Positions 77 to 41,699 of a DNA stretch of 64,000 bases are shown here, in pieces. The stretch's first letter is position 1. The number at the start of each line of letters is the position of its first letter. The translations under genes and the position numbers were made by a program. The DNA lies in contig NZ_QCYG01000004.1 of the NCBI RefSeq assembly GCF_003072065.1, positions 1 to 64,000 of the forward strand, written 5' to 3'. Below the pieces are notes generated by a model. That model did no database searches. It was not told where the DNA came from and saw nothing but the letters and a program-made list of their open reading frames with translations. Source of the stretch: Thalassorhabdomicrobium marinisediminis. Its GTDB lineage: Bacteria; Pseudomonadota; Alphaproteobacteria; Rhodobacterales; Rhodobacteraceae.

Positions 77-180
77 CGCTTTCAGTGAAACGACGACGCG
101 GTCGCAAGCGGGCCCAAGGCACGGCTACGCAGGCTACAATCGCCTGACGCGTGAAGAACGGGCTGGAGGCTCCTTGGCGC
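77..180 (+). mobile_element. IS3-family transposase (orfB) fragment
   Basis: On the plus strand, positions 78-125 encode the stretch LSVKRRRGRKRAQGT, which is identical to an internal orfB segment of the IS3-family element at 1043-2336 (there on the minus strand). After about 125 the similarity decays and the frame is lost. No terminal repeat is visible and the piece runs toward the window edge, so this is a scrap of a second copy in opposite orientation. Nothing else is recognisable in 1-76 or 181-263. Confidence 0.6.
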
Positions 181-263: not shown

Positions 264-1023
264 AATTACAATGGCGCAAATCCAGCACCCCATTATTTAC
301 GACTTTCTGGTGACTACTTTCACTATCATCGTATCCATACTTCGCCGAAGCCATTGGTCATTTGCGAAGGGAAAACTGACTACACGTATCTAAAGGAGGC
401 TATACTCTGGCACAAAAGCAACGCACGGGTGGCCGCGAACCTTGTAGATATCTCAAGATCTCCAACAAAAGGGAAAAAGACAAAGAGAGATCACTGGGGC
501 GTTGATTTCGTAAAGCACACAAAATCTGCGGACCGCTTCCTTGACGTAAGCGGGGGGGAGGAAACCTGGTTAAGTTTTGCAAACTTCACATTGAGAGAAC
601 AAAAAAATTTCACGCCGTTGCGGGGCACCAGCCTGTGATTGTTATCGTTGACAATGACAAACAAAGCGAAGGAATGTGGACTTTTATAAAACGTGAGACC
701 AACTCTTCAGCCAAGATTGATGGCTCAAAGCCCTACTACAAAGTTTCAAGTAGTCTTTACGTTGTTCCTATCCCGAAGCCCACAGGTTCGGCGGGAGATG
801 TTTACATTGAGATGCTTTTTCCTGACGCATGGTTAAAGTATGAGCTTGATGGAAGGAAACCGAAGCTGAGACAAAAAAAGGCGAAAAGCTGCAGCCAGGT
901 GAGTATGGAAAAGGAGAATTTGTGAGCAAAGTAATCCGAGCCAACAGAGGTAGTGTTGATTGCAGTGCATTCGCTCCGCTGCTTCAGAGATTTTGTGATA
1001 TTGTCGAAGGCACTGCGACTTAG
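264..1023 (+). pseudogene. Retron Ec67-like reverse transcriptase, C-terminal TOPRIM remnant
   Basis: Three plus-strand frames add up to one protein tail. The first contains KPLVICEGKTD (TOPRIM-type glutamate), the second VIVIVDNDK (TOPRIM DxD), and the third EYGKGEFVSKVI through to a TAG at 1021-1023. From memory of the family, this order matches the TOPRIM-like C-terminus of retron Ec67-type RT/endonuclease proteins. The reverse-transcriptase half with its catalytic motif is absent: upstream there is only IS debris. The two frame changes (about 601-607 and 873-879) both lie at A7 runs and both are -1. Read in the shifted frame, the joints are smooth (REQKKFHAVAGHQPVIV and QKKGEKLQPGEYG). 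The gene is dead for reverse transcription. The family assignment is good and the exact retron type is uncertain. Confidence 0.6.
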
Positions 1024-1465
1024 TTTTATAGTATTACGTCCGTGACCTGCCCCCCCACTGGTCCCTCATTCATAACGAGAGTTTACAGGTTTGTTTTTGA
1101 TAGTTGGGGGTTCCGGATTGGGCAAGCGCGGTGGGCGCGGAGCCCTCAATTTGCTCAAGCGCCTGCCGCGCTTGCTTTGGCGTTTGGTTTCCGAGCGATG
1201 AGTGTGGCCTGATGGTGTTGTAGTCATAGCGCCAGAGGGCCAGCTTCCGTCGTGCATCGTCCAGAGTGTCGAAGATCTCCTCGTTCAGCAGCTCATCGCG
1301 CAGGCTGCTGTTGAACGTGAGGAGGGATCAGGAAAGGCCCCAGTGGGGCGTTTCCCCGACGTAAAATGAAGCGTTCTGCTGTGGCCTGCCGGGATCGATG
1401 TAATGCCATGGAACGGCGTTCTGGTCGGCCCATCGCAGTATGGCCCGACTGGTGAACTCCGTCCC

Positions 1466-1507
1466 CCTCTCGGCAGTTTTGCTCCGCAAATCGCCTGTCG
1501 GGCAAGG
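1466..1507 (-). repeat. Family A palindromic insertion, copy A1 (42 bp, in frame)
   Basis: An extra 42 bp sits between the codons for SDN and GTEF of the IS no. 1 transposase, adding 14 codons with no stop. On the plus strand it runs from CCTCTCGGCAG through a TTTTGC-tcc-GCAAA hairpin to CCTGTCGGGCAAGG. The flanking transposase codons join perfectly without it, which fixes the borders to within the GG ambiguity. Confidence 0.75.
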
Positions 1508-1810
1508 GTTGTCGCTGACAATACAAGCGGGCTTCCCGTAAATCCGCACCAGCGCGTCCAGTTCCCGAGCGACACGCGCGCCGGAGATGCTGGTGACTGC
1601 AATCAGGCCCAAGTTTTCGCGGCTGCAGTCGTCGATCACCGCCAGAATACGGAACTTCCGTGAAGCCCCGAAGCTGTCGGAGAGAAAGTCCAGCGACCAC
1701 CGTCCATTGGCGCGCACCGCCTGCGGCATAGGCGTGCGTGTGCCTTGGGCCCGCTTGCGACCGCGCCGTCGTTTCACTGAAAGCCCTTCCTCCCGGTAGA
1801 GCCGATACAG

Positions 1811-1860
1811 TGCTTCGTCAGGAAAACGATCCCCCAGATCATTTCCTACTCTGGCTTCGC
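1811..1860 (-). repeat. Family C palindromic insertion (about 45 bp, in frame)
   Basis: The transposase reads MIMTH, then an extra block, then LYRLYREEGL, where IS3 orfB proteins normally have only one or two residues. The block contains an imperfect palindrome with arms AGGAAAacGATC (1820-1831) and GATCatTTCCT (1837-1847). The reading frame stays open through it. Only one copy is seen in this window, so the borders are approximate. Confidence 0.45.
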
Positions 1861-1970
1861 TGTGGGTCATGATCATACCTTTGCGGTCGAGCAGAACGCC
1901 GATCCGGCGGTAGCCGAACCGACGCCGCTTGCCGGCATTTCCTTCATCTCCTTATGTATCTCTGCGCAGT

Positions 1971-2014
1971 CCCCCTCTCATCGAAACTGGGTTTCGACTG
2001 CCGTTGCAGGCGGG
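1971..2014 (-). repeat. Family A palindromic insertion, copy A2
   Basis: On the plus strand CCCCCTCTCA is followed by a perfect 7-bp hairpin TCGAAAC-tgg-GTTTCGA (1981-1997) and then CTGCCGTTGCAGG. It interrupts the orfB N-terminal region after RRERP. The layout (CCCCTCTC, hairpin, CTGCC half-palindrome) matches copies A1, A3, A4 and A5 although the hairpin arms differ in sequence. Confidence 0.65.
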
Positions 2015-2051
2015 ACGGGCGTTCGCGCCGGACTGTCTTTGGGTCGACACC

Positions 2052-2090
2052 CCCTCTCATGGTTTGCGGACAAACCACTGCCGGGCAGTG
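2052..2090 (-). repeat. Family A palindromic insertion, copy A3 (39 bp, in frame)
   Basis: Exactly 39 bp (13 codons) lie between CRLV and GVDPKTVRRERP of the IS no. 1 transposase. The plus-strand order is CCCTCTCA, the perfect hairpin TGGTTTG-cgga-CAAACCA, then ACTGCCGGGCAGT, itself a palindrome. Removing it restores a normal IS3 orfB sequence. Confidence 0.75.
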
Positions 2091-2178
2091 GACAAGCCGG
2101 CAGGCCCGACGCTGCGAGATTTCATAGTCCCGCATCGCCTTGAGCGCTGCCTCTCGCCGCTTTCTCAATGTCGTCAGG

Positions 2179-2213
2179 GTCGGCCTTGCCCTCGAACCGG
2201 TGGCGGGCTGACG
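2179..2213 (+). repeat. Family B palindromic insertion, copy B1
   Basis: The plus-strand core CCTCGAACCG-GTGGCGG lies within the orfA/orfB junction of IS no. 1, where it breaks the usual reading. The same core (CCTCGAACCG-ATGGCGG) occurs on the minus strand inside the transposase of IS no. 2 (copy B2), in a different position and gene orientation, so it is a mobile or repeated unit and not transposase sequence. Confidence 0.45.
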
Positions 2214-2333
2214 GCCTCCATTCCCAGAAGATCTTTCAGCACGACATTGTCGAGCATCGTATCGGCCAGCAGCCGCTTGAGCTTGGCGTTGAGCAAACTC
2301 TATATTAAAGTGAGGGATCTCGCGGGGGGCAGG

Positions 2334-3250
2334 TCATCCGCTTTTGGGAAGCTGCGTTGCGGCGATGCTGAACTTCATGGAGGTCAGCTCTGAGCCGGAA
2401 GCGGCAGGTTTCAGATGCCAATGAGAGGGATGCACAGGGCTAAATTGATTAAGTATCCATCGGCAGTGGTCCAGTTTGCTACCGTCACATTGGCTGCTCT
2501 CGGTCTTGGTTACTGAGGGAAATGTGTGCCTTGCGGATCCGTCAAGATCATGAGGAAATGTGAGCTCTTGTTTTAATCGGTCGAAAGCAATGCTTGCCTG
2601 CTCTTGAGCGGCACGGTTGATGTCCCCAGCGGGCAGTTGCGCGAGGAGGGCGAGCGAGCGCTGAAGCCAGATACCGACTTTAACTGACCCAACACCGTCC
2701 TTCCCGATCGCACCATAGGCATCTTCAAGGAGATTGCCGGGATCCAACGCTGGCACGAACACTCTCTCGAGCTCGAGCTCGAGCTGTGGTTTCTGAGCAT
2801 CGTCTGATTCCTGTTTCAGACTCCAATCCCGGATGATCCGAGATATCCGAACTATGATATCGATCGCCGTTCCTGGATCGTTGATGCCCGGCGAGAGGGC
2901 GCGCGAACCGATCTCGGACATGACAATCAATCCGAAGCGAGGGTCGCTTGATAAGTTCGGCGTTCAGCCAGCACAAAGGCGTTTAGAGGCTCGCTTAGGT
3001 CCAACACTTTTTTTCAGTTCTCGAAGCAATCGTTGCGAGCGAACGTTGTGGATGAATAAACGCTCCTGGCAGGCTTTTGACATAGACCACCACGTCATTT
3101 CCCTTTGCCCATTCTTCGAGCCGCCCCGTATCGATGTGCTGGATAAACCCCAGTTCATCTGAGTAAAGATCCACCCCATTCTCTGGGTAGTTGATGACCG
3201 GCCGGCCTCCGAGCGGGGCTGTGCGATGAAAATGACGAAAGGCTTCGCGG
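2334..3250 (-). pseudogene. DUF2254 membrane protein, C-terminal half, frameshifted
   Basis: The minus-strand frames contain GGRPVINYPENG, LGFIQHIDTGRLEEWA and SEIGSRALSPGINDP, characteristic of the soluble half of DUF2254 predicted membrane proteins. The first frame ends at a stop at 2995-2997 just after an A7 run. A -1 shift there reads KKVLDLSEPLNAFVLAERRTYQ, and one further missing base restores SDPRFGLIVMSE. The N-terminal transmembrane part is missing: the gene abuts a divergently oriented truncated AI-2E gene at about 3250. IS no. 1 inserted at the 3' end. No function is expected to remain. Confidence 0.65.
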
Positions 3251-3251
3251 G

Positions 3252-3953
3252 TTGCAAAGCGTTCTATCTCGATTGCTTACAACTGCACCGTCCGTCATGG
3301 GTCAGGTCATTTTCACCCTGGTTCTATTCTTTTTTCTGACCGCCTCAGGTGACATGTTTCATGAGATGCTGGTTCAGACAGCGTCAACATTCAAAGATAA
3401 GAAGCGAGCGATACAGATTTCCCACGATATTGAACGCAAGCTGTCCCGCTACTTCCTTACTATTACAGCGATCAATGCGGGGCTTGGCGTGGCTGTCGGT
3501 CTTGCGCGTTGGGGGCTGGGAATGCCGAGCCCTCTACTTTTCGGCGTCTTGGCATTTGCTTTTAACTACATCCCGTTCCTTGGAGCGATTGCAGGTGTCC
3601 TGCTCGCTTTCATTATAGCTGTCATCAGCTTCGACACCGTGTCATCAGCTTTGGTTGTGACAGGCGTTTATCTTGGGCTGACAACGATAGAAGGACAGCT
3701 CGTCACGCCATATGCCGTCGGGCGTAGTTTGAAGCTGAACCCGGTTCTGGTATTCTTTGCGGTGGCGTTCTGGGGCTGGGCTTGGTCTGTCATCGGCATG
3801 TTTATCGCCGTCCCGGCTTTGATTGTTCTGCGTGTCTTCTCTGAAAAGATACCTGCACTTGAAGGACTGGGAATCTTTCTATTTGGCAATGAAGCTGCGC
3901 CTGAACAGCGGGCGCCAAAGGAAGAGCGTGCCGCCGAACAAGCAGAAACATAG
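3252..3953 (+). CDS. AI-2E family permease, N-terminally truncated
   Basis: The 233-residue protein has the hydrophobic pattern and end motifs of the AI-2E/DUF20 transporter family: FAFNYIPFLGAIAG near residue 104 and a C-terminal transmembrane pair with WGWAWSVIGMFIAVPALI. Full-length members are about 340-360 residues, so roughly the first third is gone. The frame opens at a TTG (3252) exactly where sequence of the neighbouring divergent DUF2254 gene begins, so the break is a rearrangement and the start is not a natural one. An internal ATG (GQVIFTL region) could also be used. Whether a product is made is unknown. The family call is secure; function in this state is doubtful. Confidence 0.6.
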   Translation: MQSVLSRLLTTAPSVMGQVIFTLVLFFFLTASGDMFHEMLVQTASTFKDKKRAIQISHDIERKLSRYFLTITAINAGLGVAVGLARWGLGMPSPLLFGVLAFAFNYIPFLGAIAGVLLAFIIAVISFDTVSSALVVTGVYLGLTTIEGQLVTPYAVGRSLKLNPVLVFFAVAFWGWAWSVIGMFIAVPALIVLRVFSEKIPALEGLGIFLFGNEAAPEQRAPKEERAAEQAET

Positions 3954-4156
3954 GCGGGCTGGTCTTCCGTCACCACGCAGCTTCAGAAGGCCGTCATTGC
4001 TGCGAAGCCAACAAACGGACTATGTCCGATCTGCCGACCTTCATCCTCCGAAAATGCTGCGCTATGGACGAATGGCCGGTTCGGGGAAGCTGCGGCGCGG
4101 CATCAGCGTGCTAAATGGAAGACCGTTTTGGGCCGAGAGCTCCCACGCGCAACATC

Positions 4157-4181
4157 TATATTGGCGCTACGCGCCAATATA
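4157..4181. repeat. Perfect 11-bp inverted repeat
   Basis: TATATTGGCGC, a 3-base spacer TAC, then GCGCCAATATA. This would form a strong hairpin, or serve as a dimeric protein-binding site. No T-run follows, so it is not a classical intrinsic terminator. Confidence 0.7.
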
Positions 4182-4224
4182 CGGGTTAAGGTTTGCCTGA
4201 GATAGCTGTCATAGCCGGGGTCAG

Positions 4225-4356
4225 ATGCAACGCTTACAGAACCATAAGACTTTGGATGCTTTAAACAGAAACATCGCGATCGGTATTGGAATAGAAGCTG
4301 CCTCCGTGATCTGCTTTGCTTCTGGCGTCATCATGCTTTCTATATTAATGATATAG
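4225..4356 (+). CDS. Possible 43-residue single-span membrane peptide
   Basis: The open frame from ATG 4225 to TAG 4354-4356 encodes a polar N-terminus (MQRLQNHKTLDALNRN) followed by about 27 mostly hydrophobic residues, the pattern of a small one-helix membrane protein. The upstream GGGG is only a weak ribosome-binding site. It lies in rearranged DNA with no conserved neighbours and could be chance. Confidence 0.2.
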   Translation: MQRLQNHKTLDALNRNIAIGIGIEAASVICFASGVIMLSILMI

Positions 4357-4582
4357 CAGGCTCGTTGGGCTAGTAGCCGCACGAATCTCGGCCAGGCTCA
4401 GTTACACTTCTGATAGCCGGACTTAATGCAATGACGAGCATGACGCTGCGCTTCGGAAATGTCAGCAGCGGGCATCTTACCCTCGATCAAACGCAAGCGT
4501 TGCATCTGCCCCCCTGATTGCGCTCTAAGACTGACCGCTTCTCTTCGGTTAATCTGCATCCGCAAGATAATCGGAGGCGACT

Positions 4583-4844
4583 ATGGCAGAACGTGAAGTT
4601 TGGGGTTTCAAGATCGGAACATCCCCTTCCGGTAAAAGAATCTGGCAGAACGCACTCAAGCGAGAAGCAACGAGAAGGCTTCGAGAAAACGGCGTGTCGC
4701 CAGGGGAGGTGGCGGCCGAATTGGGAGCGCATGAATGCCTCGTGAGGAAATGGTGGGTTGGTGATCGGCGCGAACGCGGAGAGAAGATCTCTGTCGAGGG
4801 CTCAGCGTTCACGCAGGTATCAGTCGATCAGAGGGCCGTTCCGG
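4583..4844 (+). pseudogene. IS66-like transposase orfA (helix-turn-helix), cut by IS no. 2
   Basis: The start ATG at 4583 follows a GGAGG. The protein (EVWGFKIGTSPSGKRIW, then LKREATRRLRENGVSPGEVAAELGAHECLVRKWW) is the helix-turn-helix type of small protein encoded first in IS66-like elements. The frame runs to 4858, but from 4845 the sequence is the terminal repeat of IS no. 2, so the native C-terminus is lost. No orfB/orfC partners of an IS66 element are seen. Confidence 0.55.
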
Positions 4845-5323
4845 TGACCTGCCACTGAACTTTCATCCAGCCGCGACTAGAGCCCGGTTGGTGTTTACGC
4901 CGATCGGCGCGGTTAAGCAATCGCACGACGCGCGAAGCTTTCATCTGGCACAGCGGGGCGGGCGATTACGGCGGTCAGGGCCCGCGCGTAGTCAGCCGGG
5001 GTTTAGTATTCCAAAGCTGAATGTGGACGCCTGGTGTTGTAGTCGACTGCCCAAGCAGCGATCACAACGCGCGCATGAGCCAGGTTGCGGAACATGGTCT
5101 CGTTGAGCAGCTCATCGCGCATGCGGCCGTTGAAACTCTCCACGAAGCCATTCTGCATCGGCTTGCCCGGCGCGATGTAGTGCCATTCGATGCGGTGCTC
5201 GGAACACCACCGCAGGATAGCGTTAGAGGTTAGTTCCGTTCCATTGTCACTGACGATCATTCCGGGCTTCCCGCGGCGCTCGATCAGGGTCGTCAGTTCC
5301 CGCGCCACACGGCGCCCCGAGAT

Positions 5324-5371
5324 TTAGGGTGAGCCATTGAGCCGCCATCGGTTCGAGGCCAATGGCGAACG
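5324..5371 (-). repeat. Family B palindromic insertion, copy B2
   Basis: On the minus strand, TTCGCCATTGG-CCTCGA-ACCGATGGCGG is inserted between the codons for CLAAI and [10 protein letters not shown] of the IS no. 2 transposase. Arms GCCATTGG and CCGATGGC pair with one mismatch. It is related to copy B1 in IS no. 1 through the shared core CCTCGAACCG. Here it introduces a stop (TAA), so it is not translatable through. Confidence 0.5.
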
Positions 5372-5471
5372 GATCGCAGCGAGGCACTCTCGGATGACGT
5401 CGTCGACCACGTTGAGCACCCGGAAACGCAGTCCACTGGCGAACTGGGCGTGGACGAAATCCAGAGATCCC

Positions 5472-5511
5472 GTTGACCGGCAGTCGTTTGCACAGCAAAC
5501 GACGAGAGGGG
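5472..5511 (+). repeat. Family A palindromic insertion, copy A4 (reverse orientation)
   Basis: It lies inside the transposase after RPNAR, where IS3 proteins continue WSLDF. On the minus strand it reads CCCCTCTC, the perfect 9-bp hairpin GTCGTTTGC-tgt-GCAAACGAC, then TGCCGGTCAACG. Relative to the interrupted gene it is inverted compared with A1, A2, A3 and A5, yet it is still free of stop codons in the frame used. Confidence 0.7.
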
Positions 5512-6087
5512 GCGCGCATTGGGCCGGGCCTCGACCAGGATCGGGGCTCGCGTTCCGACAGTCTTACGCCGAGTCTTCCGCTTGCGCACCGTCAGGCCTT
5601 CCTCGCGGTAGAGCCTGTAGATCCGGTTGATGCCGGACGGCTCGCCCTCGCGGCGCAGCAACACGAACAGACGGCGGTATCCGAACCGCCGCCGCTCGTT
5701 GGCCAGTTCCCGCAACCGCTCCCGCAGTTCCGTATCCGGCGCGCGCTGCGCTTGGTAGCGGATCATCTTGCGATCCGCCCCGGTAACCCGGCACGCCCGC
5801 CGTTCCGAGAGCCCGAACCGGGCCTTCAGGTGCGCGACCGCCTCGCGCTTCACGGCAGGCTTCACCACTTTTTTGAAACCAGATCCTTCATCACGGCCAG
5901 GTCCAGCATCTGCTCGGTCAGAAGCTTCTTCAGCTTCGCATTCTCATCTTCCAGTGCCTTCAGCCGCTTCGCATCCGACACCGTCATGCCGCCGAATTTG
6001 GCCTTCCAGTTGTAGAAAGTGCCTTCCGACATGCCATGGGCACAGGTCCGCGCACTTCGCCCCGGCCTCGTGCTCGGTCAGGATGCC

Positions 6088-6128
6088 CCCTCTCGGCAGA
6101 TTGCTTCGCAATCGCCTGCCGGGCAGCG
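6088..6128 (-). repeat. Family A palindromic insertion, copy A5 (41 bp)
   Basis: It lies within orfA of IS no. 2 between DEQII and GILTEHEAGAK. The plus strand reads CCCTCTCGGCA, hairpin GATTGC-ttc-GCAATC, then CCTGCCGGGCAGCG. At 41 bp it shifts the frame and truncates OrfA. The flanking codons rejoin exactly when it is removed. Confidence 0.75.
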
Positions 6129-6228
6129 GATGATCTGTTCGTCTGTAAATCCCGTTCGCTTCATTGTCCGTCCTCAGATTGGGCCGGACTCTAATCAACA
6201 GTGGAGGAAAAATCCCGTGGCAGGTCAA

Positions 6229-41613: not shown

Positions 41614-41699
41614 GCCCGCGTGGTGGAATGGTAGACACTGGAGACTTAAAATCTCTTGGCCGTATGGCCGTGCCGGTTCGAGTCCGGCCGCGGGCACCA
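41614..41699 (+). tRNA. tRNA-Leu (anticodon UAA)
   Basis: 86-base class II tRNA. Acceptor GCCCGCG pairs with CGCGGGC, the anticodon stem is GGAGA/TCTCT around CTTAAAA (anticodon TAA), and a long variable arm (TGGCCGTATGGCCG region), T arm GCCGGTTCGAGTCCGGC and an encoded CCA follow. A 10-bp hairpin with GAA loop follows at once. Confidence 0.95.

What the first reader, a model, noticed from the sequence alone, without database searches (positions are those of the whole stretch)
1466..6128. Family of 39-42 bp two-hairpin elements inserted inside transposase genes, often in frame
Five copies (1466-1507, 1971-2014, 2052-2090, 5472-5511, 6088-6128) share one plan: CCCCTCTC, a hairpin with copy-specific arms, then a CTGCCGGGCAG-like half palindrome. 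At least three can be cut out exactly so that the transposase codons rejoin. Two are multiples of three (42 and 39 bp) and stop-free, adding 13-14 codons. A4 is inverted relative to its gene and still stop-free. All five lie in IS3-type transposase genes. This resembles Rickettsia palindromic elements that insert into reading frames, but I know of no description in Rhodobacteraceae. They may be non-autonomous elements riding on or neutralising IS elements.
Basis: partly seen in the sequence, partly recalled or inferred. Interest (0 to 1): 0.8.

Follow-up and report, generated by a model that had tools for sequence, protein, structure and literature searches.

The report
Tiny hairpin elements invading transposase genes
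Stretches of about 40 bases, each with two fixed ends and a hairpin whose arms differ from copy to copy, have inserted themselves cleanly and repeatedly into the transposase genes of several unrelated kinds of jumping element in one family of bacteria; the enzyme that moves them is unknown and I found no description of them in the papers I could search.

Summary
The window's copies are insertions: orthologous IS3 copies that cover the sites lack them. They belong to a family of elements, nearly all 37-44 bp, common in the window's family and rare elsewhere in the class: CCCTCTC, a hairpin with covarying arms, then TGCCGGGCARYG. They insert without target-site duplication at about C^RAYG, in either orientation. 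They are not IS3-specific: Pfam, tblastn and annotation place them in IS3, IS5, IS110, IS66, IS256, IS30 and other transposase genes; some are intergenic. "Often in frame" fails: 22 of 136 copies have a length divisible by three. In one genome identical copies sit at the same nucleotide of three diverged IS paralogues (dS 0.5-1.0), which points to recurrent site-specific insertion. IS copies also multiply while carrying them: in G013 all six full-length copies of one IS carry the same four elements. No mobilising enzyme was found. Best reading: a new family of non-autonomous, folded-DNA-dependent micro-elements that collect in, usually disable, and hitch-hike on insertion sequences. Whether loaded insertion sequences stay active is open.

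The parts
1465..1507 (+). A1: element (core GGCAGTTTTGCTCCGCAAATCGCC, tail TGTCGGGCAAGG) in the IS3 transposase gene between SDN and GTEF codons (SDN holds the second D of the DDE motif; motif naming recalled)
   Evidence: absent from the 20 orthologous loci that cover the site; one C of the C-run is ambiguous
1972..2020 (+). A2: element with normal head and hairpin (1972-2003) and a degenerate right end (TGCCGTTGCAGG...); right border uncertain
2052..2090 (+). A3: 39-bp element, core ATGGTTTGCGGACAAACCAC; target TCGACACC|GACAAGCC; near-identical element at the same site in G000 contig C34 (L341)
   Evidence: other variants at this site in L048 and L138 and, inverted, in L254
5471..5510 (-). 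A4: element in opposite orientation to A1-A3 and A5, core GTCGTTTGCTGTGCAAACGAC, tail TGCCGGTCAACG, next to the WSLDF codons (first D of DDE, recalled)
   Evidence: absent from the 11 orthologous loci that cover the site; junction off by one base
6088..6128 (+). A5: 41-bp element, core GGCAGATTGCTTCGCAATCGCC; target CAGGATGCC|GATGATCTG, in orfA of the second IS3 copy
   Evidence: absent from the 12 orthologous loci that cover the site; second copy at G000:C29:360199-360236
1130..2330 (-). host: degraded IS3-type element carrying A1-A3
4980..6200 (-). host: degraded IS3-type element carrying A4 and A5

Best explanation
A family of non-autonomous mobile DNA micro-elements, nearly all 37-44 bp, with a fixed 5' end (CCCTCTC), a hairpin (usually with a bulged A in the 22-nt class) and a 12-nt 3' end (TGCCGGGCARYG). 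SHOWN: they are clean insertions, without visible duplication or loss of target bases, at about C^RAYG, in either orientation; the same nucleotide is occupied again and again in related transposase genes; most lengths break the frame; copies of an IS carrying them have multiplied. INFERRED: an enzyme acting in trans recognises the folded single strand and joins its 3' end to the RAYG side of the target. This would explain why pairing is kept while arm sequence drifts, the lack of a target-site duplication and the hairpin set 12 nt from the 3' end. INFERRED: they pile up in transposase genes because these offer preferred, tolerated sites, and because a loaded IS can still be moved by a related transposase in trans.
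For: Empty sites for the window's copies. Clean empty sites in annotated IS30, IS3 and IS256 transposase genes of other plasmids; for IS30 the 30 bases on either side are identical. Covariation in 33 sequences that had been picked by a hairpin-scoring scan: 95.3% of cells paired, 59 two-sided changes against 19.2 in shuffles, score 0.564 against 0.140 in shuffles and at most 0.161 when slid (the two coarser measures are weaker, 3/500 and 17/500). Without any hairpin filter: 45 distinct 22-nt cores, 83.2% paired against 59.7% (at most 65.7%) after dealing out the arms anew; 36 of 45 have at least 7 of 9 pairs. Target in 126 non-redundant sites: C 108 at -1; G 100 at +1; A 67 or G 31 at +2; C or T 103 at +3; G 73 at +4. 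Recurrence: in G134 the same 41-nt element lies at the same codon of three IS5 copies with dS 0.81-0.93 in orfA and 0.48-0.99 in orfB, interleaved on the tree with copies lacking it. Enrichment: 61 of 126 sites lie at one of five reference transposase groups, against 2 of 114 control positions in the same loci. Amplification with the IS: G013, six copies, four elements each.
Against: No enzyme found: Y1_Tnp in 2 of 10 element-rich genomes and 0 of 10 with no match; Y2_Tnp in 5 of 10 and 1 of 10; the ends of the IS91-like elements that I read do not resemble the element. No longer element with the same 3' end: of 23 tail matches inspected, 11 have no full element, and by eye these are native gene sequence or broken elements. 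Same hairpin at the same site could also be descent under strong constraint. Quasipalindrome correction could keep arms paired without an enzyme. Loci were fetched through elements, so IS enrichment is measured within that sample. Left border and target are uncertain by one C in some copies.
Confidence: 0.7

Rival explanations
1. The elements are removed in the cell (precise DNA excision, RNA removal or ribosome bypass), so a loaded IS still makes transposase, much like an intron or a mitochondrial byp element.
For: G013: all six full-length copies carry four frame-breaking elements, no full-length element-free copy was found, and removing them in a script gives one 308-aa OrfB in all six. Several multi-element IS have no other stop once elements are removed (L213, L228, L302-L307, L325, L330, L333, L350). 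L332/L333 share two elements with dS 0.25-0.29 and dN/dS 0.14-0.26.
Against: Elements occur in both orientations in the same gene (two each way in G013), which a sequence-specific RNA process would hardly tolerate. Near-identical copies show no constraint: 3 synonymous to 12 non-synonymous codons in G013, one of them changing the orfA start, dN/dS 1.06 in G067. Other multi-element IS do have stops (L025, L136, L143, L150, L232, L316, L332, both window copies). Trans-mobilisation explains the copies too.
Confidence: 0.1
2. Vertical inheritance only: the elements entered IS lineages long ago and same-site sharing is descent; there is no continuing mobility.
For: Many same-site pairs share orientation and hairpin, with flanks 74-91% identical; copies within G013 are plainly inherited.
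Against: In G134 the 41 nt are identical while synonymous divergence of the gene is 0.5-1.0, and element-bearing copies are interleaved with copies lacking that element. The same site also carries unrelated hairpins or an inverted element.
Confidence: 0.12
3. No IS preference: random insertion, with survivors visible mainly in tolerant DNA (IS, intergenic).
For: Three of the four G108 loci read lie between ordinary open frames; 58 of the 60 plasmid hits listed have no annotated gene under them, although that gene table leaves out pseudogenes.
Against: Up to five elements in one IS of about 1.5 kb, and re-use of the same nucleotides, are not expected from tolerance alone.
Confidence: 0.3
4. REP elements moved by a RAYT (Y1) transposase.
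For: Size, imperfect hairpin with a bulge, some closely spaced head-to-head pairs.
Against: No GTAG or CGTC tag in the consensus; Y1 transposase not found in 8 of 10 element-rich genomes.
Confidence: 0.04

Closest known systems
Rickettsia palindromic elements (RPE)
   Same: small palindromic repeats inserted inside genes
   Different: RPEs are about 150 bp and often in frame in functional genes (passages of PMC10969869); these are about 40 bp, mostly frame-breaking, and found mostly in transposase genes in the sample read
REP elements / RAYT systems
   Same: short imperfect hairpins of 20-40 bp, sometimes in pairs
   Different: the main REP superfamilies carry a GTAG or CGTC tag (start of abstract and passages of PMC3733652); no such tag here and no general Y1 transposase
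MITEs
   Same: non-autonomous, repeated, insert cleanly
   Different: no terminal inverted repeats, no target-site duplication, far shorter, no parent IS found
IS91 / Helitron-type rolling-circle ends
   Same: no target duplication, hairpin about 12 nt from the 3' end, preferred target bases at that end (features recalled)
   Different: ends differ from the IS91-like elements read here; Y2 transposase not general
Mitochondrial GC clusters, double-hairpin elements and byp elements (recalled, not looked up)
   Same: roughly 40-nt hairpin inserts inside genes, varying in sequence but not in plan
   Different: different organisms; both orientations occur here; removal not shown

Membership tests
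Rickettsia palindromic elements | in-frame insertion in functional protein genes | tested here: not met
   22 of 136 copies divisible by three, 19 of 126 non-redundant; at least 19 of 28 loci in the contig-order sample lie at transposase genes
Rickettsia palindromic elements | length of about 100-150 bp | tested here: not met
   125 of 126 non-redundant copies are 37-44 bp
REP / RAYT | GTAG or CGTC tag at the hairpin foot | tested here: not met
   33-sequence alignment
REP / RAYT | Y1 (RAYT) transposase in the genome | tested here: not met
   PF01797 in 2 of 10 element-rich genomes
MITE | target-site duplication | tested here: not met
   clean empty sites
MITE | terminal inverted repeats shared with a parent IS | tested here: not met
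   ends CCCTCTC and TGCCGGGCARYG are not inverted repeats; no longer element with the same tail among 23 matches inspected
IS91 / Helitron-type | no target duplication and preferred bases at the 3' end of the insertion | tested here: met
IS91 / Helitron-type | Y2 transposase element with matching ends | tested here: not met
Bypassed or spliced insert (byp, intron) | removal from RNA or protein | not testable with these tools
   needs RNA-seq or proteomics; ORF restoration in G013 is only indirect

The most novel reading that the evidence does not exclude
The elements are neutral to their hosts because they are taken out before protein is made, so an insertion sequence can carry up to five of them, some at its most conserved codons, and still transpose: a bacterial counterpart of mitochondrial byp or double-hairpin elements.
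Probability: 0.1. Interest if true: 0.95.

Novelty: new variant of a known kind. Interest (0 to 1): 0.7.

Why it matters
How the smallest palindromic repeats of bacteria move is an old open question. Here there are clean empty sites in nearly identical DNA, a target rule, a covarying hairpin and genomes with tens of copies, so mobility, target choice and enzyme can be tested directly. The elements also look like parasites of parasites: by sitting at conserved transposase codons they would silence insertion sequences, which may shape how mobile DNA is controlled in this family. In annotation they can make a transposase gene look like an ordinary pseudogene.

Tried and rejected
Hairpin as guide to the target: longest shared words between hairpin and flanks do not exceed permuted pairs (z 1.43, 0.41, -0.11, 0.30; an earlier redundant set gave z 2.08, 0.92, 1.53, -0.82). 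Larger element with the same tail: none seen among 23 tail matches inspected in 20 fetched stretches. Y1 and Y2 transposases as general mobilisers. Rfam: only a tRNA in the window at gathering thresholds. Gene conversion in G134: flanks differ within about ten bases of the junction, so no co-converted tract is visible. Phages: one partial match in 50,697 records. IMG/VR: 55 stretches match the pattern, not followed beyond the listings. My scanner makes errors: at score 16 it gave 97 real and 8 shuffled hits, at 18 107 and 4, at 20.5 71 and 0, and one hit in L397 at 18.1 is native sequence. One search's 136 copies were picked with a looser filter and hold some chance matches.

Papers. Searches. 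Seen as passages found by term: PMC3646047, PMC3733652, PMC12306157, PMC10969869, plus starts of abstracts in the listings; all others as listings only. Nothing seen describes this family. Most subscription journals are not in the library, so the absence is weak evidence.
Full report
WHAT IS THERE. The window starts in a stretch with two degraded IS3-type elements (about 1130-2330 and 4980-6200, both on the minus strand). They carry five short inserts. Compared with orthologous IS3 DNA from family genomes, the inserts are absent from the copies that cover the sites: 12 loci for A5, 11 for A4, 20 for A1, 16 for A2 and 14 for A3. The exception is L254, which carries an element at the A3 site in the opposite orientation and other sequence at A2; L247 covers A3 only in part. 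The joints are blunt: CAGGATGCC|GATGATCTG for A5 and TCGACACC|GACAAGCC for A3. A1 and A4 fit within one base; A2 has a damaged right end.

THE FAMILY. A loose pattern (CCCCTCTCN{14,30}CTGCCG) matches in 162 of 295 genomes of the family, chance matches included. In eight rich genomes a stricter pattern gives 138 matches against 2 for the reversed control. In a sample of 385 genomes of the class 14 match: 4 of the 5 same-family genomes, the window's own included, and 10 others. By eye only two of those ten (G487, three copies; G409, two copies) have a real hairpin; the rest match native-looking sequence. In the window's genome I saw seven copies: five in the window, one in a second truncated IS copy (C29:360199) and one on contig C34 at the A3 site.

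ANATOMY. The 5' border is sharp (CCCTCTC) and the element ends TGCCGGGCARYG. Of 136 unique copies the commonest lengths are 41 (53), 37 (20), 39 (16), 43 (12), 38 (11) and 40 (9) bp; 22 are multiples of three. In the 22-nt hairpin class, 33 distinct sequences chosen by a hairpin-scoring scan keep 95.3% of pair cells; 8 of 9 pairs have two-sided changes; the covariation score is 0.564 against 0.140 in shuffles and at most 0.161 when slid. Since the scan favours pairing, I repeated the count on every 22-nt core between a fixed head and tail with no pairing filter: 36 of 45 cores have at least 7 of 9 pairs, and overall pairing is 83.2% against 59.7% (at most 65.7%) after dealing the arms out anew. 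A bulged A is kept in 30 of 33. Hairpin sequence does not match the target flank beyond chance.

TARGET. In 126 non-redundant sites the base before the element is C in 108 and the base after it G in 100; then A in 67 or G in 31, C or T in 103, and G in 73. No target duplication is seen. The cleanest proof lies in plasmids: Sulfitobacter sp. SK025 has an annotated IS30 transposase gene, while two Sulfitobacter pontiacus plasmids have the same DNA with two elements inserted (one of them has a third nearby); the 30 bases on either side of both joints are identical. One of those insertions differs by a single C between the two plasmids (41 or 42 bp), which explains the one-base ambiguity seen elsewhere. 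Three empty sites in an annotated IS3 gene (94.5% identical DNA) and one in an annotated IS256 gene (88%) agree.

WHERE THEY SIT. Ten segments that looked like transposases were scanned with Pfam: nine have a transposase or integrase-core domain (IS110, DDE_Tnp_1_6, IS66, DDE_3, Mutator twice, rve or rve_3 three times) and L225 only helix-turn-helix domains. In a sample of 28 distinct loci taken in contig order from eight rich genomes, 15 lie at one of five reference IS groups and four more (L209, L216, L226, L233) have transposase domains: at least 19 of 28. Three of the other nine, all from G108, lie between ordinary open frames. Over 126 site representatives, 61 lie at a reference IS group, against 2 of 114 control positions more than 1.2 kb away in the same loci. 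The listing shows elements beside conserved codons such as VMI|DATYLKAH, LI|DSTGIKAEG and SDN|G (catalytic naming recalled).

RECURRENT INSERTION. In G134 three IS5 copies carry the same 41-nt element at the same codon, while synonymous divergence between the copies is 0.81-0.93 in orfA and 0.48-0.99 in orfB. On a tree of 11 distinct IS5 sequences they fall on separate branches, two of them paired with copies from G035 and G250 that lack that element (support 0.986 and 0.915; some deeper nodes weak; the copies were mostly fetched because they hold elements). G250 shows a similar pattern at two sites. In the IS3 groups one site is occupied by different hairpins in different genomes. Repeated, site-exact insertion explains this better than descent, but descent under strong constraint is not excluded.

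HITCH-HIKING, AND THE OPEN PUZZLE. In G013 (main contig 4.33 Mb) a search with one loaded IS finds six full-length copies (1385 bp, 99-100%), all with the same four elements, and otherwise only fragments or lone elements. Differences among the six are as dense inside elements (3 of 154 positions) as outside (22 of 1231), so the elements were probably there before the IS multiplied. Cutting out the four elements in a script leaves one open 308-codon OrfB in all six. Either a related transposase moved them in trans, or the element does not stop expression. Against the second: two elements lie in each orientation, and codon changes among the copies are 3 synonymous to 12 non-synonymous; a G067 pair gives dN/dS 1.06. 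For it: several multi-element IS show no other stop, though others show one or more, the window's copies included; and the G250 pair L332/L333 shares two elements with dN/dS 0.14-0.26, though these may be separate insertions and L332 has a stop.

ENZYME. Not found. Y1_Tnp is in 2 of 10 element-rich genomes and 0 of 10 without a match; Y2_Tnp in 5 of 10 and 1 of 10. The ends of the IS91-like elements read here are different, and one such gene itself holds an element (L410). Of 23 tail matches inspected, 12 are full elements and 11 are not; by eye the 11 are native gene sequence or broken elements, so no larger element with the same 3' end was seen.

VERDICT. A real and widespread family of mobile micro-elements that I could not find described. 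They work like small palindromic parasites but fail tested defining features of RPEs, REP/RAYT systems and MITEs. That folded DNA is the substrate and that an enzyme acts in trans are inferences; the rest is shown by the calls cited.

Noticed in passing
window 78-122 and 1740-1784: A 45-bp inverted repeat, 98% complementary: a second fragment of the first IS3 transposase lies inverted at the start of the window.
   Followed up: no
window 354-925: Two adjoining open frames look to me like a broken gene for a TOPRIM-type or retron-associated protein (recalled resemblance, no search made).
   Followed up: no
L351, reverse strand near 3494: A copy with head, 5' arm and tail but no loop and 3' arm, i.e. 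a half-deleted hairpin.
   Followed up: no
L310 near 2206-2337, against L314: Loaded IS3 copies in G075 differ by loss of about 131 bp between short GTCACC repeats, which removed one of five elements.
   Followed up: partly
L399 (903-943) against L402 (889-929): The same insertion in two Sulfitobacter pontiacus plasmids differs by one C in the C-run at the element's 5' end.
   Followed up: yes
L070 25-120 (= end of L327): Two elements head to head with 16 bases between them; similar close pairs in G064:C364 and G067:C45.
   Followed up: no
L045 2079-2117: A 39-bp element lies inside a 417-aa open frame that matches Transposase_mut over residues 18-390: an in-frame case outside the Rhodobacteraceae.
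   Followed up: no
window 41614-41696: tRNA gene, the only Rfam match in the window at gathering thresholds.
   Followed up: no
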